DNA of 30,600 nucleotides, from the IMG/VR virus record IMGVR_UViG_3300049217_000106, positions 1 to 30,600 of that record. The stretch is one strand, 5' to 3'. The stretch comes from a virus. Shown in pieces: positions 2,812 through 21,669 of this stretch. A program made the position numbers and the translations under genes. The first letter of the stretch is position 1. Every line of letters begins with the position of its first letter. The notes beneath the pieces were generated by a model. That model was not told the DNA's origin. It worked only from the letters and a program-made list of their open reading frames with translations, and made no database searches.

Positions 2812-3096
2812 TTATCTTCTTCTTGAACTTCTTTCAGTCCCACACAACCCACAATAGCGTATGCCATCGTAATTATCATAACCGCAGCTTTTATTCGGGC
2901 ATATCCATTCGTTTTTCATTTCAACTTTTTTATGATGTTTAGACACTTCTGCTTGCAGGGGCATTAGAGCAAGCACAGTAAATAACAAAACTGCAAGCAT
3001 AATCAAAGCAAGTTTGTTGTCTCGGTACGTTTTTTCCCGGGGTGTCATATCACGTCTATAATCTTCAACCCAAATGTAATCTAAAAATTTCTTCAT
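2812..3096 (-). CDS. Membrane-anchored zinc-ribbon protein
   Basis: A 94-residue protein with three parts: a charged N-terminus (1-27), one hydrophobic segment about residues 28-47 (LALIMLAVLLFTVLALMPL), and a C-terminal zinc ribbon with C-x4-C at CPNKSC and C-x2-C at CGLC, ending in an Arg-rich tail. The likely arrangement is a single-span membrane protein displaying a metal-binding ribbon, side not determinable. Its ATG overlaps the TGA of the upstream gene (ATGA at 3093-3096). The function is unknown. Confidence 0.65.
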   Translation of the reverse strand: MKKFLDYIWVEDYRRDMTPREKTYRDNKLALIMLAVLLFTVLALMPLQAEVSKHHKKVEMKNEWICPNKSCGYDNYDGIRYCGLCGTERSSRRR

Positions 3097-3964: not shown

Positions 3965-4843
3965 TTAAATCCTTGTTATACGCGACGATTTTATCACAGC
4001 CTTCCTGTATTGCTCAAGATCAACTTGCTTGAGTTCAGGAATTTTATCGTATGAGATAGCTCCACGTTTAAAAAAATGTGTAAGTTTCGTGTATGCGCCG
4101 CAAATATTTTTTCCTTGCGACATCTCAAAAAGTTTTACACGAATCTGTTCTTTTTGTTCTTCCAATTTTTCTAATTTATGACAGATATCGACGTAAGCAG
4201 CTTCGGCAGCTCTATAATCAGGATTTTGAGACATATCGCGATAATCTTTTGATAGAAGTTCTGGCGCTGTAAACGTTTGGACGCATTCCCAAAATTCTCT
4301 TGCTTTCGGAATATAATCCGCCAGAAAGGCTTCGTCACGTATAATGGGAAATGAATACATTGCCAGATTAGCATCTGGATGATAGCCGACATAAGTTATT
4401 TCCTGAAGACTACAAACCAGCATTTGATGCTGCAATTGAGCATAATAAATCGGAAGAATTTTACCTTTTATTGCTGCATTATGATTATTGAGATTTAAAC
4501 ATTTTATTTCGCAGGCATAAGTTTTGTTTGGTGTGATGCAAAGCCCATCAAGCGAAGCGCACATATAAGGATATTCCTCAGACTCAATAACAGCCGGCGA
4601 ATAGGTACCGTAAGTATTGTTATTCATGAGATATAAAGCTTCCGACTCAAGATTCTTTCCTCGTTGCATCCCTAAAGTCGTTTTCTGCTCCGAACTCAAT
4701 CCTAATTTACGTTTCCATAAAGAAAATGGCGTACAATATGATGAGAATCCTAAAATTATAGCGGCATCGGAGCTCCCAATTTTTGAACGGCGATATTGCA
4801 ACCATTCTTCTGTATTTTGTTCGATCATAATTATTCGGGGCAT
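3965..4843 (-). CDS. YqaJ / lambda-exonuclease family recombinase nuclease
   Basis: A 292-residue protein of the PD-(D/E)XK fold used by YqaJ and lambda Red-alpha exonucleases, which resect one strand of double-stranded DNA ends. Visible motifs are WLQYRRSKIGSSDAA (residues 14-28), the glycine/Glu segment RGKNLESEA (61-69), the catalytic aspartate in SLDGL (D99) and the E-x-K pair in CEIKCL (E112, K114). The C-terminal third contains a coiled coil. An internal ATG gives MIEQNTEEW as an alternative start. The neighbour at 4956 is a RecT-like annealing protein, the usual partner. Together they form an exonuclease plus single-strand annealing module for phage recombination and concatemer formation. 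Confidence 0.88.
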   Translation of the reverse strand: MPRIIMIEQNTEEWLQYRRSKIGSSDAAIILGFSSYCTPFSLWKRKLGLSSEQKTTLGMQRGKNLESEALYLMNNNTYGTYSPAVIESEEYPYMCASLDGLCITPNKTYACEIKCLNLNNHNAAIKGKILPIYYAQLQHQMLVCSLQEITYVGYHPDANLAMYSFPIIRDEAFLADYIPKAREFWECVQTFTAPELLSKDYRDMSQNPDYRAAEAAYVDICHKLEKLEEQKEQIRVKLFEMSQGKNICGAYTKLTHFFKRGAISYDKIPELKQVDLEQYRKAVIKSSRITRI

Positions 4844-4923: not shown

Positions 4924-4956
4924 CCCGTGTAGCAATTGTGCTACACGGGTTTTTTT
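4924..4956 (+). terminator. Strong rho-independent terminator, rightward
   Basis: A perfect 11-bp stem, CCCGTGTAGCA with TGCTACACGGG, around the loop ATTG, followed by seven T (4950-4956). The T tract is on the plus strand only, so it stops rightward transcription, although both flanking genes are leftward. It abuts the stop codon of the recT-like gene. On the minus strand the hairpin may instead protect the end of the recT-like message. Confidence 0.8.
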
Positions 4957-5792
4957 CATTCGTCGACAGCCTGCTGTTTCATCGCTGTTTCTTCCTCGCG
5001 ACGTGAATAATTTGCTTTAGCATCATTGTTTACTTTTTCAAACATTATTGCCGGAATTTCAGCTAAAGACATGATCCCCAGTTTTGCTAAACGATTCATG
5101 ACAGATTTTAAATATGCGTCGTCATTGTCAATAAAATGCAACAAACACTTAAGTTGAGACTCGTTGATGGGAGTCATATCAATTTGTTTCTTGGGTTTTT
5201 CTTCTATGTCAAGCTGCTTTACATTCTCGACTTCGACTTCAGCTTCGGGTAAAGATTTAGCATAATCACCCGTGCGAGTTATCTCTTTCAACTCATCTTC
5301 AACGTAACCGGCACCTAAAGACAAATCAGGGAACAGTTGACGAAACAGCATCGACATACAACGATTATAAAGCATGACGCCAGGGTATTTTTTCCACGTG
5401 GCACTATTCCAAAGTCCGGCCGCTTCAGCATCAGCGCGGGTAAAAGTACATGTCCAAGTATCTCCATTATCTGCGCGCTTGCCATGTAAAATTACACATT
5501 CGCCATTAGACTTAGAATCTTTTTGGATTGAATGTCCACGTTGCCGGACTAATGCAGCCATCATTTCCGTACTCATCCCCACGCGTCCTTGGACCACATA
5601 AAAAGATCCGTTAAGTGCTTCAAAAGGATGTATACCCAATGCTTTCGCTCTTGCCATAATAGCATGAATCCCAGATTCTCCAAGATTAGCATAATGTTTG
5701 GTGCTCATAAGCTTTCTACAGGTATCTTGTATTTTATCGAATTCCTCTAGCTGCATTGTGAAGTCACTCTTTATCATTATTTCTTTACTCAT
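4956..5792 (-). CDS. RecT-family single-strand annealing protein
   Basis: A 278-residue protein from the ATG at 5792, preferred because AGAGGTG lies just upstream; a GTG two codons earlier sits within that site. The N-terminal two thirds match the RecT/Redbeta-like recombinase layout: a MARAKALGIHPFEALNG helix-turn, a strand YVVQGRVGMSTEMMAALV, then TCTFTRADAEAAGL and a WKKYPGVMLYNRCMSMLFRQLFPD-type helix ending at GAGYVEDEL. The C-terminal third is charged and variable, as in the family, with a helical tail. Members anneal complementary single strands made by a partner exonuclease, here encoded at 3965-4843. It is the first gene leftward from the divergent control region. Confidence 0.85.
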   Translation of the reverse strand: MSKEIMIKSDFTMQLEEFDKIQDTCRKLMSTKHYANLGESGIHAIMARAKALGIHPFEALNGSFYVVQGRVGMSTEMMAALVRQRGHSIQKDSKSNGECVILHGKRADNGDTWTCTFTRADAEAAGLWNSATWKKYPGVMLYNRCMSMLFRQLFPDLSLGAGYVEDELKEITRTGDYAKSLPEAEVEVENVKQLDIEEKPKKQIDMTPINESQLKCLLHFIDNDDAYLKSVMNRLAKLGIMSLAEIPAIMFEKVNNDAKANYSRREEETAMKQQAVDE

Positions 5793-5922
5793 ATTCACCT
5801 CTTTGTTTAAGAAAGCACCAGTCTAACATAAGTCGTATTTTACAGCAACATGTTTAACAAAAAAAAATCAAGATTGCGCAAAAATGTGATTTAGTATATT
5901 TTTATCAAAAAAGGGGAGAACC
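5793..5922. promoter_or_regulatory. Divergent control region 1 with AACATGTT motif
   Basis: This intergenic region separates the leftward recombination genes from the rightward repressor-like gene. It holds AGCAACATGTTTA (5844-5856) followed by an A tract and ATCA, a segment repeated almost exactly in the other divergent region (10655-10680). AACATGTT is an 8-bp palindrome and a plausible operator half-pair. AT-rich stretches such as TAGTATATT before 5923 could be a -10 region, but no clean promoter is called. Confidence 0.5.
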
Positions 5923-6900: not shown

Positions 6901-7734
6901 ATGACGCTTTTTAGAGTAAATCATAATAAAAATTATACAATTATAAACAACACAATTTGTAAAGATAACCGTCTTTCCTGGAAAGCTAAAGGGATTTTTC
7001 TTTACGCCTTTAGTCGACCTGATACCTGGCAGTTTTTTCTTGAAGATTTAATTAAACAATCCACAGATGGGAAAGATTCCGTTAGTGCTGGATTAAGAGA
7101 ATTAGTCGAAGCAGGATACTTAAAGCGTGAGAGAATAAGGAAAGCAGATGGTACTTTTGAAAGAGGGGCTATATGGGACTTTTTTGAAACTCCACAAGAA
7201 TTAAAAGAATTTGTACCAGAAACGGAAAATCCAGTTTTGGATAATCCAGTCTTGGAAAAACCGCCACTAATAAGTACTGATCCTGTAATAAGTACTGAAA
7301 AGAACAGCAACAGTGCTGTTGTTTTTTTTGATTGTTTGAAAGATTTAGATATACCCATTGCTGACAAAATTGCTATTTCAGCCACTAACCCTGAATCTCG
7401 CGTCAAACACGCTGTGGCTTTCGCTACGCATCCCGAGACTAAGTTTACTAAAGGACTTGTCCAATGCCTCAAATGGGCCTGTAACGAACAGCCTGCATTA
7501 CCTAAGGGAAAAGGCGATATAATCCAAGAAAATAAGGCTTATGCGCAACATCTTGTAAATATAATCAAACCTATTCAACATGTTAGTTTTGAAGCACTTA
7601 ATGCATCCGTAGAAATTCACTATATTATAGGTCAAATGGAACCTTTTGTATTAAGTTATCATGAAAATGCTTTTAAAGAACAGCTACATAATGGTTTAAG
7701 AAAATTCGGTTACAAAGTGGATAATTTAAAATGA
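6901..7734 (+). CDS. Replication initiation-like protein with winged-helix N-terminus
   Basis: A 277-residue protein. Residues 1-100 match the winged-helix domain of phage replication organisers: an N-terminal strand FRVNHNKNYTIINN, then LSWKAKGIFLYAFSRPDTWQF, a recognition-helix region STDGKDSVSAGLRELVEAGYLKRER, and a beta wing with Arg and Gly. A Pro/Thr/Ser-rich linker covers roughly 100-135. The C-terminal part (about 140-277) is helical, plausibly the origin or helicase-loader contact domain, but I do not recognise it. Members bind the origin and recruit the helicase. The structured leader immediately upstream fits regulation or an origin. The stop overlaps the next ATG (ATGA). Confidence 0.7.
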   Translation: MTLFRVNHNKNYTIINNTICKDNRLSWKAKGIFLYAFSRPDTWQFFLEDLIKQSTDGKDSVSAGLRELVEAGYLKRERIRKADGTFERGAIWDFFETPQELKEFVPETENPVLDNPVLEKPPLISTDPVISTEKNSNSAVVFFDCLKDLDIPIADKIAISATNPESRVKHAVAFATHPETKFTKGLVQCLKWACNEQPALPKGKGDIIQENKAYAQHLVNIIKPIQHVSFEALNASVEIHYIIGQMEPFVLSYHENAFKEQLHNGLRKFGYKVDNLK

Positions 7735-7976
7735 TTTTCAGATGTAGAAATGAGATATGTAATAATGAAATTAATCCCAATGAAGATTTGTTTTGTAAAT
7801 CATGCCGTGAGAGACTAAATCCTGAGGACGCTGCAATAAGAAAGTTTTGTGAAGAAAATCCTTCCTATTATGATCCAAATGGAGATTTACCAATTATTTT
7901 GGATAAAAATGGAAGGCAATTAACTCATGAAGAAATCTTAAGCGTATGCGATAGTCCGAACTCTGGGCATAAATAA
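7731..7976 (+). CDS. Small zinc-ribbon ORF that runs into intron remnant
   Basis: An 81-codon frame coupled to the replication gene by ATGA. The first 26 residues form a zinc-ribbon-like site, CRNEIC (C-x4-C) and CKSC (C-x2-C). From RERLNPE onward the frame reads through the conserved P7/P3/P8 strands of a group I intron and ends with CDSPNSGHK, the same C-terminus produced by the ORF in intron 1 (CDSPNSDHK). The middle (residues about 37-70) lies in the P8 loop and looks protein-like. I infer a native zinc-ribbon gene fused to inserted intron sequence, or an intron ORF whose 5' part was lost. Confidence concerns translation, not function. Confidence 0.4.
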   Translation: MIFRCRNEICNNEINPNEDLFCKSCRERLNPEDAAIRKFCEENPSYYDPNGDLPIILDKNGRQLTHEEILSVCDSPNSGHK

Positions 7977-8062
7977 AGCCACAGAAGAGTCCAGAAATGA
8001 GGCTCTCGCCTATGTGACAGCAATGTAACGCGATGTCATTTAGGTCAATAAGTAACAGAATG
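7802..8062 (+). ncRNA. Partial group I intron (3' half), ectopic
   Basis: The sequence CCGTGAGAGACTAAA is shared with capsid intron 1. P7 is GACTA (7813-7817) with TAGTC (7952-7956), followed by CCGAAC as in intron 1. P8 pairs ACGCT with AGCGT around an insert of about 100 bases. The 3' end has the family signature GTCAATAAGTAACAG and should end at G8062. P4 and P5 cannot be found upstream. One possible P3 strand, TTTTCAGAT at 7736-7744, can pair with ATCCTGAGGA (7819-7828) with the same bulged C as in introns 1 and 2, so a degenerate 5' half is not excluded. The 3' exon is a capsid gene fragment, but no capsid 5' exon precedes it. Confidence 0.75.
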
Positions 8063-8227
8063 ACAGGTCCGGTCCGCTCAGCATATTTTATGCTCAGCTC
8101 GACTGAACTACAATCCGACTTTGATAGTTTGGTGGGTTCTGGCTTTTTAAGTCAGTGGAATTACCCAACAAATGCAAGTGCTTTGCCTTCTGAATATGGC
8201 TCTGTTTTACAAAAAAGAATATTTTGA
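8063..8227 (+). pseudogene. Fragment of a second, diverged major capsid gene
   Basis: The frame starting just after the intron remnant encodes TGPVRSAYFMLSSTELQSDF and continues to SEYGSV near 8207. It aligns without gaps of note to TAPVRMAFFGLTHTNMSADL through SEWGSV of the resident capsid protein (residues 183 onward). The DNA is well diverged from the resident gene, so this is not a recent duplication. The frame ends at TGA 8227 after LQKRIF, so only about 50 of some 320 residues are present and no start or 5' exon exists. It is most simply a capsid exon that came in with the intron from a related phage. Confidence 0.75.
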
Positions 8228-8287
8228 AAATTTATTGCAAGAAATGCTTAATGATGGATTGATTGAAAAGATTAAACCTATCCCTGA
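8151..8287 (+). pseudogene. Possible C-terminal remnant of a disrupted gene
   Basis: In a frame different from the capsid fragment, sequence from about 8196 encodes MALFYKKEYFENLLQEMLND and on to KIKPIPEF, then stops at 8287. The stretch has the look of real helical protein sequence but no ribosome-binding site, and overlaps the capsid fragment. It could be the tail of the gene into which the intron/capsid segment was inserted. Speculative. Confidence 0.25.
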
Positions 8288-8295
8288 GTTTTAAA

Positions 8296-8466
8296 ATGAA
8301 AGCTAAACGCGTTGTCTTCGTCCGTAGAGGTCAAAAGGAATTCCGTCTATACATCAAACCCGACTGGTGGAAGACAATACCCGATCTTGACTTTATCGAG
8401 GATATTGAGATATATACTTCGAAAGATATTAATAATAAAGACCATAAAGAAAAAGGTGACCTTTGA
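8296..8466 (+). CDS. Hypothetical 56-residue protein
   Basis: Started at the ATG at 8296; an upstream TTG at 8263 lies in the debris region and has no ribosome-binding site. The product begins MKAKRVVFVRRGQKEFRLYI, strongly basic beta-type sequence, then WWKTIPDLDFIEDIEIY, and ends in a Lys/Asp-rich tail. It overlaps the start of the RusA-like gene by four bases. No family recognised; possibly a small nucleic-acid-binding accessory protein. Confidence 0.5.
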   Translation: MKAKRVVFVRRGQKEFRLYIKPDWWKTIPDLDFIEDIEIYTSKDINNKDHKEKGDL

Positions 8467-8903
8467 TTAAAGACAAGATCATGGTTTTCGTCCCGCATAA
8501 AATCATCAGCGAAGCGAATAACACCGATCACTGGACAAAAAAAAGACAAAGAACAATCGCCCTGCAATTTGCCATTATCGCCGAATTAAAAAACAAATTT
8601 GAGTTTCCTTTTCCCTGCATCGTCACTTTTGAGCGGGTTGGTAAGAAATTTCTTGATGACGATAATCTTATACATGCTTTCAAACACTGCAAAGATCAAG
8701 TTGCCGAACTTATCGTTTTGCAAAATGATCCTGTTTTGACAGTGAAGGCCCTTAAAATGCCACCAAATCAATCAAAAGGCGTTTGGGATAGCTGCCCTCA
8801 CATTGAGTGGCGATATGGTCAGAAATCGAACGTAGATGCGTTTAAACGAAAACATCCTTTAGGCTTCTGGATCACTATTGAACCCGCGATCAAAGTGCAA
8901 TAA
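8463..8903 (+). CDS. RusA-like Holliday junction resolvase
   Basis: A 146-residue protein of RusA size. The start is the TTG at 8463, with AAAAAGGTGA a few bases before; the next ATG (8481) would leave five residues off. The RusA signature is the acidic cluster DDDN at residues 65-68 in KKFLDDDNLIHAFKHCKD, followed by D78 and a second ND pair at 88-89, the positions that bind Mg in RusA. The N-terminus has the substrate-side SEANNTDHWTKKRQR. RusA enzymes cut four-way junctions and branched DNA before packaging. It fits functionally with the exonuclease/annealing pair at 3965-5792, although transcribed separately. Confidence 0.7.
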   Translation: MIKDKIMVFVPHKIISEANNTDHWTKKRQRTIALQFAIIAELKNKFEFPFPCIVTFERVGKKFLDDDNLIHAFKHCKDQVAELIVLQNDPVLTVKALKMPPNQSKGVWDSCPHIEWRYGQKSNVDAFKRKHPLGFWITIEPAIKVQ

Positions 8904-17680: not shown

Positions 17681-17856
17681 ACATTAATCCACGATTCCAG
17701 TTGCTTTACCACAGGACCTAGAACTTTTTTGACTTCATCATCCGGTTTGACTTTGTATTCATGCATAAACGCCATTGTCTGTTCGATAGTTGAAAGCATA
17801 TTGACCATCTTTTCGTTAGCTAACATATAAATAAATTGATCAGGTATGTTATTCAT
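17677..17856 (-). CDS. Hypothetical 59-residue protein
   Basis: Fills the space between the zinc-finger-like gene and the J-domain gene: its TGA overlaps the J-domain ATG (ATGA) and its start overlaps the previous stop. The product MNNIPDQFIYMLANEKMVNM and the rest is helical with LSTIEQTMAFMHEYKV. No family recognised. Confidence 0.6.
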   Translation of the reverse strand: MNNIPDQFIYMLANEKMVNMLSTIEQTMAFMHEYKVKPDDEVKKVLGPVVKQLESWINV

Positions 17857-18073
17857 CTTTGTTTAATGTTTTCCTCAGGTTGAAGATCCATTTAGGATTA
17901 ATTATAGTCAAACAAGTTCCTCTGCATCCACTATTCTTGTGATGCATGAAAAAACAATCGTGCGAAATTGAATTGCAAAAACTTTTTTTGCATTTTTTAC
18001 AACTGCTTGAGGGTTCTTCAGCATAATCAACAATTTTATTACAAAAAGCGCATTCAAATATCGTGATATTCAT
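17849..18073 (-). CDS. Cysteine/histidine-rich zinc-finger-like protein
   Basis: A 74-residue protein with about ten Cys/His: C8-x2-C11, C25-x2-C28, C33, H39, C41, H44/H45, C50 and C54. The order of paired knuckles with an H-x-C in the middle is reminiscent of cross-braced RING/PHD or AN1-type fingers and is unlike the simple zinc ribbons elsewhere in this genome. It is the first gene of the leftward island with the J-domain protein. A role in protein interaction is possible. No family assignment. Confidence 0.5.
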   Translation of the reverse strand: MNITIFECAFCNKIVDYAEEPSSSCKKCKKSFCNSISHDCFFMHHKNSGCRGTCLTIINPKWIFNLRKTLNKDE

Positions 18074-18962: not shown

Positions 18963-19070
18963 ATGTCAGGTCCTACAACCAGTAGTATTCTGCCTCCAGC
19001 TGTACAACAGCAATTGAGCATGAAACTACTCGCTCGTCCTATGCCTGATCTGATCCATACGACGTTGGGT
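18963..19070 (+). CDS. Capsid gene exon 1 (36 codons)
   Basis: Encodes MSGPTTSSILPPAVQQQLSM and ends with ...TTLG at GGT. The last U pairs with G19079 in P1. The unspliced frame meets TAA at 19071. Confidence 0.85.
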
Positions 19071-21669
19071 TAACGGTAGCCCACTTAAAACTTTTGGTAA
19101 TTGACTTGGAAGCCCGACAGGGTGACAAGGCGGAAGATATGCAAACCATACAGCTAGATTATAATCAATTATTAGATTTAGTGATTGATTTAAAGATAAA
19201 TGAAAAAGAATGCTATCCTTTGGATACGTATAAATTTACTGATTATGTATGGAAAAAATATCACCGTGAGAGACTAAACCCAGAAGGCGCATTATGCGCA
19301 TGTGATAGTCCGAACAGCGACCATAAATAAAATCGCTGAGAGGGGAATAACAAGACCCTCCGCCTAGAAATAGGTCATAAAAGTAACAGATGTACCCCAT
19401 CACTATGGATCAGCAAGCAGGCGATATTCTACGTAGACGTAGATATAACAACCTCAAAACAGCTCCGGTGCCTTTGGGCAATGGAATTGTTAATCCTGCA
19501 GCTCAACAGCTCACCGCACTAGACATCGACGCAAGGATCGACTGGTACGGAACTTACATGATACTACAAGAGCAAGTTATGCTCATAAACGAAGACCCTA
19601 GAGAACAATTGCAATTAGCTGCTTAACAATTTAACTTGTTCCTAAAACACGATATTGATATACTTCCTTTTTAAATAGGAGGTTGTCATGCAAGAGAAAG
19701 AATTAATGAGTTATTTATCAGGATTAATGGACGGAGATGGAAGTTTTACGATTGGCAAATTAAAAAATGCTAGTCGTTCACCTTTATATTATCCATTAAT
19801 ACAATTTGGTTTCCAAAAAAAGGATATCGTTAATATTTTTATGGAAAAGTTCGGTGGTTCATTCACTGAAATAGATCCTAAAAAAGACAAACGATACAAA
19901 CAATCTTTTTTCTCGTGGAGACTAAGAAGTTCTGATAATGTTATCCCTGTTCTTGAAAAACTCATCGAATTTCTTATCTTAAAAAAGGAAAGAGCGGAAT
20001 ATCTTTTAAGTTTCTGCAAAAATTTTTCTTTCAAACGAGGATTGATGGTTGACAAAGATATTCTTGTCGAAAGAGAAAAAGCATATTTAAAAATGGGTCA
20101 GATGAACGATTGCAGGATATTTACTGGTTTAGAAAAAACCTATAGACCTGTCAAAAATGAATCATGTGCTTATTTTTGGTCTTATGTAGCAGGAATTATA
20201 GATTCTGACGGTTCTTTTTCAATTAAAAAGCAAAAATATCAATATGGTCAAAGATATAGTGCCGTTATCAGTATTGATATGGTAGATCCTAAATCTATTG
20301 ATTATATAGCATCTAAAACAACATTTGGACGAGTTGAAGCAAATAAAATGAAAGCTTGTACAAATGGAATTTGTTATCGTCTTTCGATATGCAAAAAAGA
20401 TGATGTTATTGCTTTTTTAGAAAATGTAATTCCCTTTTTACGTGTTAAAAAAGAACAAGCTAAAACCCTTCAAGAATTTTGCTCAAACTGGAAAAATACT
20501 GGCTATTGTAAAGCTGGTGTACCACTTGAAGAAATGGCATTTCGAGAAGAATGCCATCAAAAGATTAAACAGTTAAACAAATATGGGGTCTATAAACCGT
20601 CGGTAATTGACTCGGAACTCCAAAAGCAGGACAACGAGGGCCAAGCAGGAAACGTGCAGGCTGAACGACTAAACCCGATGGACTCGAAAGAGTGTGTAAT
20701 AGTCTGAACACGGACAATAGCTAATGAAATCCGTGAGGGTGGGTCGAAGAACCCGCCCCGCCTAGAAATAGGTCATAAAGTAACAGATAGGTATTAAACA
20801 GTGCAGTGTCCGTTTTAGGCCAGTCTCTTCGTGAAACGGAAGACCAATTGGCTCGTAGTATGATGGAGGGTGGTGCTCCACCAGTTAATTGTACCTCGGG
20901 TACAAACGGTAGAGTTGCCGTTTTAAAACCTTCTCTGATTGAGGTGGAACTCTGTTTTTATGTAACAGACAACACTGCGCAAGCCGTAATGGCAGCGTAA
21001 ACGACTGAGTGAGAAGGATTGAGTTATGTAACGCGATGTAACTCAATATGCGACAGTCTGATCTCATAGGCGACTATGAGAGGAATCTCCGAAGAGGGAT
21101 TCCCGCCCATGATATAGGGTCAACAAAGTAACAGGGGTTAGGACAACCCAACTAATATCACTCCATTGGATTGCAGCAAAGCCGTCCGCTTATTGCGCAC
21201 TGCAAATGCCCAATTCATCATGGATATGATAGAAGGTGAATTGAAATTTGGAACTGCTCCAGTGAGGATGGCTTTTTTTGGTTTGACTCATACTAATATG
21301 AGTGCCGACTTAGACCAGATGGTTGGATTTATCAACGTTGCGAATTACGCAAATAACTCCAATTTGCTTATGAGCGAATGGGGCAGCGTTCGAAATTTGC
21401 GTTTCTTATTGTCTTCAGTCGGAAGCGTTTCCGTTGGTGCTTCTGCCTTGGGTGCGGATATTTATAATATCTTCATTCCTGGTCAGGAAAGCTATGACAT
21501 GATTGACTTGGATGGCTATAGTGCACAATTCATCTATGCGCCGCCTGAGATCGCATCGCCACAATTAAGACTGTATCAGACAGCGGGTTGGAAGATGGCG
21601 CAAGTATTCAACATCACGAATACTTCTTGGATCATTAATCTACGCTGCACACTTGCAGTGGCTATTTAA
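18963..21669 (+). CDS. Major capsid protein, N4 gp56 family, split by three group I introns (join 18963..19070, 19393..19599, 20791..20910, 21142..21669)
   Basis: Joining the four exons gives 320 residues with no stop. The N-terminal KLLARPMPDLIHTTLG joins YPITMDQQAGDILRRRRYNN, giving the family's loss-free pattern of a helix, L-I-H-T-x-x-G, a strand, then a basic R-R-Y. Exon 2 ends INEDP and exon 3 continues VLNSAVSVLGQSLRETEDQL, the family's E-D-P-V-L-(x6)-LG-x-(x7) motif. Exon 3 ends CTSGTNG and exon 4 resumes DNPTNITPLDCSKAVRLLRT. Exon 4 holds the rest of the shell fold. AAAGGT precedes the ATG. Without splicing, exon 1 stops one codon into intron 1. Family from motif recognition; splice sites from P1/P10 pairing. 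Confidence 0.85.
19071..19392 (+). ncRNA. Group I intron 1 in capsid gene (322 nt)
   Basis: P1: exon TGGGT with GCCCA (19079-19083), U-G at the splice site. P10: GGTA upstream of that G pairs with TACC at 19393. P3: CTTTTGGT (19091-19098) with ACC[C]AGAAG (19278-19286). P4: CTTG/CAAG (19105-19108, 19126-19129) with a CCC-GACA-GGG hairpin between. P7: GACTA/TAGTC (19272-19276, 19306-19310). The tail has GAGGG/CCCTC and CCTA-GAAA-TAGG hairpins, then GTAACAG; last base G19392. No P2. A small ORF fills the loop between P6 strands. Confidence 0.88.
19139..19330 (+). CDS. Possible intron-encoded 63-residue ORF
   Basis: Lies in the P6 insertion of intron 1 with AAGG eight bases upstream. MQTIQLDYNQLLDLVIDLKI and a short KFTDYVWKKYH segment appear protein-like, then RERLNPE and CDSPNSDHK are translations of the P7/P8 strands. 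No endonuclease motif (LAGLIDADG, GIY-YIG, HNH) is present, so it may be a degraded endonuclease ORF or a chance frame. Confidence 0.3.
   Translation: MQTIQLDYNQLLDLVIDLKINEKECYPLDTYKFTDYVWKKYHRERLNPEGALCACDSPNSDHK
19393..19599 (+). CDS. Capsid gene exon 2 (69 codons)
   Basis: Encodes YPITMDQQAG through MLINEDP. Start fixed by P10 with intron 1 and end fixed by AGACCCT pairing with GGGGTCT of intron 2. Reading past 19599 gives 8 extra codons to a stop at 19626. Confidence 0.85.
19600..20790 (+). ncRNA. Group I intron 2 in capsid gene, with homing endonuclease (1191 nt)
   Basis: P1: AGACCCT (19593-19599) with GGGGTCT (20585-20591), 7 bp with U-G; the endonuclease gene lies in the P1 loop. 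P10: ATAT before that IGS pairs with GTATT at 20791. P3: CCGTCGGT (20597-20604) with ACC[C]GATGG. P4: CTCG/CGAG. P7: GACTA/TAGTC (20667-20671, 20700-20704). P8: GACTC-GAAA-GAGT. The tail shares CGCCTAGAAATAGGTCATAA with intron 1; last base G20790. P3 and P4 differ from intron 1 by compensating changes. Confidence 0.9.
19688..20707 (+). CDS. LAGLIDADG homing endonuclease, intron 2-encoded
   Basis: A 339-residue two-motif LAGLIDADG protein: LSGLMDGDG at residues 10-18 and VAGIIDSDG at 167-175, both with the catalytic Asp, so it can act as a monomer cutting an asymmetric intronless capsid site. Each motif is followed by SF and a beta-rich half-domain; the halves look like a duplicated fold. AGGAGG lies six bases before the ATG. 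From about residue 297 (NKYGVYKPS) the frame passes through IGS, P3-P8 and ends within P7 (SKECVIV), so the last ~45 codons double as ribozyme core. Such enzymes mobilise the intron into empty alleles. No sign of inactivation. Confidence 0.93.
   Translation: MQEKELMSYLSGLMDGDGSFTIGKLKNASRSPLYYPLIQFGFQKKDIVNIFMEKFGGSFTEIDPKKDKRYKQSFFSWRLRSSDNVIPVLEKLIEFLILKKERAEYLLSFCKNFSFKRGLMVDKDILVEREKAYLKMGQMNDCRIFTGLEKTYRPVKNESCAYFWSYVAGIIDSDGSFSIKKQKYQYGQRYSAVISIDMVDPKSIDYIASKTTFGRVEANKMKACTNGICYRLSICKKDDVIAFLENVIPFLRVKKEQAKTLQEFCSNWKNTGYCKAGVPLEEMAFREECHQKIKQLNKYGVYKPSVIDSELQKQDNEGQAGNVQAERLNPMDSKECVIV
20791..20910 (+). CDS. Capsid gene exon 3 (40 codons)
   Basis: Encodes VLNSAVSVLGQSLRETEDQL through CTSGTNG. 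The boundary at 20791 is set by the five-base P10 (GTATT) and gives the family motif E-D-P-V-L-N across the junction. It ends at GGT before AGAGTT of intron 3. Confidence 0.85.
20911..21141 (+). ncRNA. Group I intron 3 in capsid gene (231 nt, no ORF)
   Basis: P1: exon AAACGGT (20904-20910) with GCCGTTT (20917-20923), 7 bp including U-G. P10: GTT before that G pairs with GAC at 21142. P3: CCTTCTC (20929-20935) with GAGAAGG (21011-21017). P4: GGTG/CACT. P7: GACTG/CAGTC (21003-21007, 21054-21058), a compensated change from GACTA/TAGTC. P8: ATTGAGTTA/TAACTCAAT, 9 bp. A CTCATAG-GCGA-CTATGAG hairpin follows. Tail GTCAACAAAGTAACAG then GGGTTAG; last base G21141. The shortest, probably most streamlined copy. 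Confidence 0.9.
21142..21669 (+). CDS. Capsid gene exon 4 (175 codons and stop)
   Basis: Encodes DNPTNITPLDCSKAVRLLRT to the C-terminus TLAVAI. The codon just before 21142 in this frame is TAG, so the exon cannot extend left. It holds the region that aligns with the stray capsid fragment at 8063 (TAPVRMAFFGLTHTNM). Confidence 0.85.
   Translation, partial: DNPTNITPLDCSKAVRLLRTANAQFIMDMIEGELKFGTAPVRMAFFGLTHTNMSADLDQMVGFINVANYANNSNLLMSEWGSVRNLRFLLSSVGSVSVGASALGADIYNIFIPGQESYDMIDLDGYSAQFIYAPPEIASPQLRLYQTAGWKMAQVFNITNTSWIINLRCTLAVAI

What the first reader, a model, noticed from the sequence alone, without database searches (positions are those of the whole stretch)
7802..8227. Ectopic intron half fused to a fragment of a foreign capsid gene
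About 11 kb from the capsid gene lies the 3' half of a fourth intron of the same family, followed directly by roughly 50 capsid codons (TGPVRSAYFM to SEYGSV). The fragment is clearly diverged from the resident gene. It shows a fourth insertion site, before the residue equal to Thr183, empty in the resident gene. No capsid 5' exon is present. The simplest history is illegitimate repair during intron mobility that carried intron plus flanking exon from a related phage into a zinc-ribbon gene next to the replication gene.
Basis: partly seen in the sequence, partly recalled or inferred. Interest (0 to 1): 0.88.

Follow-up and report, generated by a model that had tools for sequence, protein, structure and literature searches.

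The report
Stray capsid-intron piece beside replication gene
A soil phage carries, next to its replication gene, a stray piece of another phage lineage's capsid gene together with the back half of the self-splicing intron that sits there, and relatives that lack the piece show how it overwrote most of a small native gene.

Summary
Window 7735 to about 8206 is foreign: the 3' part of a group I-type intron (P6-loop ORF, P7, P8, P9, 3' splice site at 8062/8063) fused to 48 capsid codons. The exon matches capsids of another phage lineage (clade B) at up to 100% protein identity, the resident type at 36-47%. In 19 of 157 relatives, 10 of them clade B, an intron ends at exactly this Gly|Thr site. 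The 5' intron half and 5' exon are absent. Two relatives without the insert (L191, L204) show a different small gene starting on the replication gene's stop codon (ATGA); the window keeps that start and the gene's last ~29 codons, and the middle was replaced. Best explanation: illegitimate, short-homology recombination with clade B DNA during co-infection, possibly by the phage's RecE/RecT-like proteins (inferred). An assembly chimera is unlikely but not excluded without reads. No second case was seen in 100 relatives' records. In addition, P6-loop ORFs of these introns share ancestry with stand-alone phage genes (5 of 45), so introns and gene islands may swap small genes at start codons.

The parts
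6901..7734 (+). Replication initiation-like gene (rep); its stop codon overlaps the start codon at 7731 (ATGA)
   Evidence: PHROG replication initiation protein E 4e-24; 3' end 7608-7728 aligns without gaps to L191
7729..7734 (+). Left junction zone AAATGA, shared by the native site and the start of the foreign ORF
   Evidence: homology upstream of the ATG to intron cores is not above chance (46 of 353 controls as good)
7731..7976 (+). 81-aa ORF: intron P6-loop ORF with zinc ribbon, reading on through P7, the P8 loop and the S strand, with the family's usual stop
7813..7817 (+). P7 5' strand GACTA (R motif); P8 5' arm ACGCT at 7828-7832
7941..7956 (+). P8 3' arm AGCGT (7941-7945) and P7 3' strand TAGTC (7952-7956)
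7957..8062 (+). P9 domain and 3' end of the intron; last intron base G8062
   Evidence: covariance model hit 7942-8063, 92 bits; alignment A1; fold
8063..8206 (+). Foreign capsid exon, 48 codons (TGPVRSAYFM to SEYGSV), clade B type
8204..8210 (+). Right junction zone GTTTTAC
8205..8294 (+). Remaining 3' end of the native small gene (F-Y-K-K-E-Y-F-E ... P-I-P-E-F, stop)
   Evidence: 57% to the gene behind rep in L191 and L204, E 2.8e-5; nucleotide score 33 against at most 21 in 500 shuffles
8463..8903 (+). Right-flank gene (RusA-like by my reading, no Pfam hit), same order and strand in relatives
   Evidence: 72% in L191 and L204
3965..5798 (-). RecE-like exonuclease (3965-4843) and RecT-like annealing protein (4956-5798)
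18963..21669 (+). Resident clade A capsid gene with three introns of the same family; the Gly|Thr183 site is unoccupied
   Evidence: the automatic map shows only two of the three introns

Best explanation
The insert is a natural product of illegitimate recombination between two phage lineages. DNA of a clade B phage, whose capsid gene held a group I-type intron at Gly|Thr, recombined at very short matches with the small gene behind the replication gene of the window's phage. One crossover fell at a start codon (AAATGA), the other at about GTTTTAC in the capsid exon. A piece of about 473 nt (intron P6 ORF to 3' splice site, plus 48 exon codons) replaced about 56 codons of the native gene. Shown: both source types, the native gene, the empty site in two relatives, the missing 5' intron half. 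Without P1 to P5 the intron half should not splice (established knowledge of group I introns). Inferred: co-infection, annealing or break repair as the mechanism, the role of the phage's RecE/RecT-like proteins, and translation of the 81-aa intron ORF from the native start codon.
For: Exon source: 193 clade B-type contigs, up to 100% aa, 35 silent differences and no amino-acid change against L081. Intron at the same site in 19 of 157 relatives. Empty site and native gene: L191 and L204, two metagenomes. Zinc ribbon is intron-borne. 5' half missing. RecE/RecT-like genes. Illegitimate repair at microhomologies is described for T4 intron homing in PMC2988022 (passages).
Against: No reads were seen, so a misassembly is not excluded. 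The short matches at the junctions are not above chance on the left. The exact donor is not in the collection: best exon DNA identity is 79%. A profile search extends capsid similarity to 8248 across a stop, although one search finds it not significant past 8206. No endonuclease cut is shown.
Confidence: 0.8

Rival explanations
1. Assembly chimera: a clade B capsid stretch was spliced into this contig by the assembler.
For: Single contig; no second contig with the right junction (0 exact matches, a search that may also hide the window's own record); metagenome origin.
Against: It needs two false joins inside one colinear locus: both flanks continue as in L191 and L204 (rep end, native gene end, right-flank gene), and the native 5' part is replaced, not merely interrupted. 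No long shared sequence at either junction. No near-identical donor contig in the collection.
Confidence: 0.1
2. The zinc-ribbon ORF is a native gene behind rep, and only the intron 3' half from about 7802 plus exon was inserted into it.
For: The start codon at 7731 lies on the rep stop as the native gene's does in relatives; small zinc-ribbon ORFs occur elsewhere in the window (for example 2812-3096 and 17849-18073).
Against: The second zinc knuckle abuts the P7 strand exactly as in intron ORFs of L053, L044, L069, L097 and L061; L053 shares 7779-7827 at 82%; the 3' remainder of the gene belongs to a different family with no zinc ribbon in L191 and L204.
Confidence: 0.07
3. RNA route: reverse splicing, or integration of a reverse-transcribed capsid precursor RNA.
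For: Reverse splicing is the usual proposal for group I introns reaching new sites (PMC3984707, passages).
Against: Reverse splicing inserts a whole intron without exon; here the 5' part is missing and a downstream exon is attached. I saw no reverse transcriptase among the proteins scanned, but only part of the window's proteins were scanned.
Confidence: 0.02

Closest known systems
[quoted passage not shown] 1999, known here from passages and reference lists of PMC2988022 and PMC3984707; the paper itself is not held)
   Same: Intron DNA joined to heterologous sequence by homology-poor recombination with microhomology at junctions; suggested as a way for introns to reach ectopic sites.
   Different: A natural case between two phage lineages; the intron is truncated to its 3' part, brings 48 exon codons, and replaced most of an unrelated gene. 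No endonuclease cut is shown.
Group I introns in phage capsid genes, e.g. Cluster J mycobacteriophages (PMC3706429, title and start of abstract seen)
   Same: Introns interrupting capsid genes of tailed phages.
   Different: Here one intron family, below Rfam's thresholds, occupies many sites in two capsid lineages and mostly carries small non-endonuclease ORFs in the P6 loop.
Exon co-conversion during intron homing (recalled from the homing literature; mentioned in PMC2988022 passages)
   Same: Exon DNA flanking the intron is transferred along with it.
   Different: Co-conversion happens at the homologous gene; here the exon landed about 11 kb away in an unrelated gene.

Membership tests
Group I introns (the family the piece derives from) | P7 helix next to the G-binding site, kept by compensatory change | tested here: met
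   GACTA/TAGTC in 47 and GACTG/CAGTC in 13 of 60 introns examined; ectopic copy has GACTA/TAGTC
Group I introns (the family the piece derives from) | P8 and P9 helices | tested here: met
   P9 run of at least 6 pairs in 65 of 66 segments; P8 arms pair better than mismatched arms, mean 5.17 against control maximum 4.62; ectopic P8 5 pairs, P9 with one bulge
Group I introns (the family the piece derives from) | Match to the Rfam group I intron model | tested here: not met
   No hit at gathering score in the window or 14 relative loci, none at E 5 in the two regions
Complete, splicing-competent intron at 7731-8062 | 5' half (P1 to P5) and 5' exon present | tested here: not met
   No core motif or capsid exon upstream
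Complete, splicing-competent intron at 7731-8062 | Self-splicing of the intact relatives at this site | not testable with these tools
   Frame is restored on removal in 15 of 18 relatives tried; no RNA data
Intron homing with exon co-conversion | Transfer into the homologous, intron-free gene | tested here: not met
   Target is a small unrelated gene behind rep
Illegitimate recombination at microhomology | Junctions without extended homology, sharing a few bases | tested here: inconclusive
   AAATGA and GTTTTAC zones seen; left match not above chance, right not tested separately

The most novel reading that the evidence does not exclude
The P6 loop of these capsid introns is a slot for small phage genes, and genes move both ways between intron slots and operon islands by recombination at start codons. 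The window catches one outbound transfer: an intron-borne zinc-ribbon gene placed exactly on the start codon of a native gene, dragging along the intron's 3' half and a capsid exon, and now possibly translated there. Basis: P6 ORFs start behind a Shine-Dalgarno-like AAGGGGCAAG in the intron core, differ widely upstream of the R core, and 5 of 45 have homologues outside capsid genes at E below 1e-3, none in 20 shuffled sets.
Probability: 0.35. Interest if true: 0.78.

Novelty: new variant of a known kind. Interest (0 to 1): 0.62.

Why it matters
Illegitimate movement of intron DNA into unrelated sites has long been proposed as the way mobile introns reach new places, with laboratory support from phage T4 (PMC2988022 and PMC3984707, passages seen). 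Here a natural case can be read with donor lineage, target gene and empty site all in hand, and it shows exon DNA travelling with the intron between capsid lineages. If the P6-slot idea holds, group I introns in phages would be carriers of small non-endonuclease genes, which can be tested directly.

Tried and rejected
Rfam at gathering and relaxed thresholds gave no intron hit, so a model was built here. Close-relative scans with rep, with the zinc-ribbon ORF and with the right-flank gene found none; recT gave the empty-site relatives. Intron homology continuing upstream of 7731 through a similar GGTTA..CAA..GG string was tested and dropped (46 of 353 controls as good). Exon continuing past 8206 was tested: identity falls from 0.52 to 0.23 and the best alignment is not significant (fraction 0.10), while the native gene matches. 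Decay of P9 in the ectopic copy: one bulged A in the best fold, too weak to use. Trans-splicing of the half intron was considered and dropped: no free 5' half was found and the exon leads into no capsid frame. Three intron-model hits away from capsid genes in relatives proved to be introns in portal genes. GenBank phages gave no match to the fragment. P6 ORFs against PHROGs gave nothing at E 0.005 or better.

Full report
What is there. The window is a whole IMG/VR record of 30,600 bases from a tailed phage with a P22-like portal gene (Pfam E 8e-53). Its capsid gene, 18963-21669, holds three introns of one family. A covariance model made from 16 copies (the ectopic copy among them) finds their 3' domains at 19296, 20690 and 21044 and a fourth at 7942-8063.

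Where the exon comes from. The 48 aa at 8060-8203 match 193 viral contigs, of which the best 80 were listed and fetched (L080-L159, clade B) at 87-100% identity. The resident capsid type is a different clade (A; 77 loci fetched); the fragment matches its loci at 36-47%. Full capsids of the two clades are 36% identical. Against L081 the fragment has 35 nucleotide differences and no amino-acid change over 47 codons; the closest exon DNA is L130 at 79%. The piece was therefore under protein selection until recently, and its exact donor is not in the collection.

Where the intron comes from. By the end motif GTAACAG (or GTAATAG) plus exon start, 19 of 157 relatives have an intron ending at this same Gly|Thr site, 9 in clade A and 10 in clade B (window not counted). 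For 15 of 18 tried, the intron could be delimited with the reading frame restored on both sides (L097, L113 and L138 failed; L070 was not tried). The ectopic copy aligns with L085 and L080 from about 7943 to 8204-8207 at 71-74%. P7 pairs in 60 of 60 introns examined with a compensatory change, P9 forms in 65 of 66, and P8 arms pair better than mismatched arms, so the family is group I-like, although no Rfam intron model reaches its threshold. The 5' half of the ectopic copy is absent.

The zinc ribbon belongs to the intron. These introns often carry a small ORF in the P6 loop: it starts behind AAGGGGCAAG or a variant, has a variable first part, and then reads through the core as (Q/R)(P/E)ERL ... 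CDSPN..K. Of 52 distinct ORFs of at least 25 aa found by that start motif, 14 have two CxxC pairs; a few of the 52 are plainly not intron ORFs. A profile of 47 P6 ORFs without the window finds 7731-7976 at E 2.7e-8, next to the resident intron-1 ORF (7.6e-9) and ahead of all others among 111 window ORFs of at least 40 aa. Part of that score comes from the core-coded tail. The first part is supported separately: L053's intron shares 7779-7827 at 82% and has the zinc knuckle at the same place.

What was there before. Scans with rep, the zinc-ribbon ORF and the right-flank gene found no close relative. A scan with the RecT-like protein found 14 loci, of which L191 and L204, from two metagenomes, have the same neighbourhood: recT 78-81%, rep 43%, right-flank gene 72%. 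In both, an 86-codon gene starts on the rep stop codon (ATGA), and its last part matches window 8205-8294 (57%, E 2.8e-5; nucleotide score 33 against at most 21 in 500 shuffles). Homology on the left stops at 7728, followed by the shared AAATGA. So a piece of about 473 nt replaced about 168 nt of that gene between its start codon and its last 29 codons. The native gene resembles a winged-helix protein only below cut-off (Pfam SelB-wing_2, E 0.035). L191's own capsid is a third type, 33-35% to A and B, so replication modules and capsid types are exchanged in this group.

How it most likely arose. Co-infecting clade B DNA recombined at very short matches; the phage's own RecE/RecT-like genes make annealing-type recombination plausible. 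One review describes illegitimate repair at microhomologies during T4 intron homing (PMC2988022, passages); another says illegitimate pathways are thought necessary for intron transposition (PMC3984707, passages). An endonuclease cut is not shown. The left match is not above chance by itself.

How common. Capsid-protein searches of 100 relatives' whole records (50 clade B with the clade B reference; 45 from the clade A search plus 5 clade B with the clade A reference) showed capsid pieces only at the capsid gene, read by eye from the tables; two records wrap round their ends. Pieces too short for E 1e-3 would be missed, and the clade A reference is less sensitive to clade B pieces. The intron model found 97 places in 47 of 50 records: 94 in capsid genes and 3 in portal genes, none stray. 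The window is the only case seen.

The wider reading. Five of 45 P6 ORF first parts have homologues outside capsid genes at E below 1e-3, against none in 20 shuffled sets. These introns therefore seem to pick up small phage genes. The window's piece, with an intron ORF sitting exactly on a native start codon, would be a transfer in the other direction. This is a proposal, not a result; the window's own zinc-ribbon first part had no stand-alone homologue among the loci held.

Literature. Searches on capsid introns, phage intron surveys, ectopic or illegitimate transfer, intron fragments, microhomology, zinc-ribbon intron ORFs and multiple capsid introns listed no paper whose title or abstract start describes such a natural intron-plus-exon piece; only open-licence papers are held and most were seen as listings only. 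In PMC11878797 only a word search was done.

Noticed in passing
L003-L159 capsid genes; window 18963-21669: Capsid genes of these soil phages are crowded with introns of one family: many different sites in the two clades, up to four per gene by an automatic map that undercounts.
   Followed up: partly
Intron P6 loops, e.g. L053 3122-3346, L085 462-650, L069 415-630, window 19139-19330: Small non-endonuclease ORFs in P6 loops, start motif in the intron core, 14 of 52 with zinc-ribbon spacing; 5 of 45 have stand-alone homologues.
   Followed up: partly
L181, L183, L184, L187: Of 9 MAG contigs with a related capsid gene, 4 are binned as Chlamydiota (Chlamydiia, Simkania, Simkaniaceae, Parachlamydiaceae); the hosts may be environmental chlamydiae, though binning of phage contigs is unreliable.
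   Followed up: no
L064 5215-6000: The intron at the Gly|Thr site in L064 encodes what looks like a LAGLIDADG protein (by eye), a candidate homing endonuclease for this site.
   Followed up: no
L188, L189, L190: Introns of the same family also occur near the 5' end of portal genes in three relatives.
   Followed up: partly
L191 record (G107), L208: A phage whose replication module resembles the window's has a third capsid type, 33-35% to clades A and B: modular exchange between capsid lineages.
   Followed up: partly
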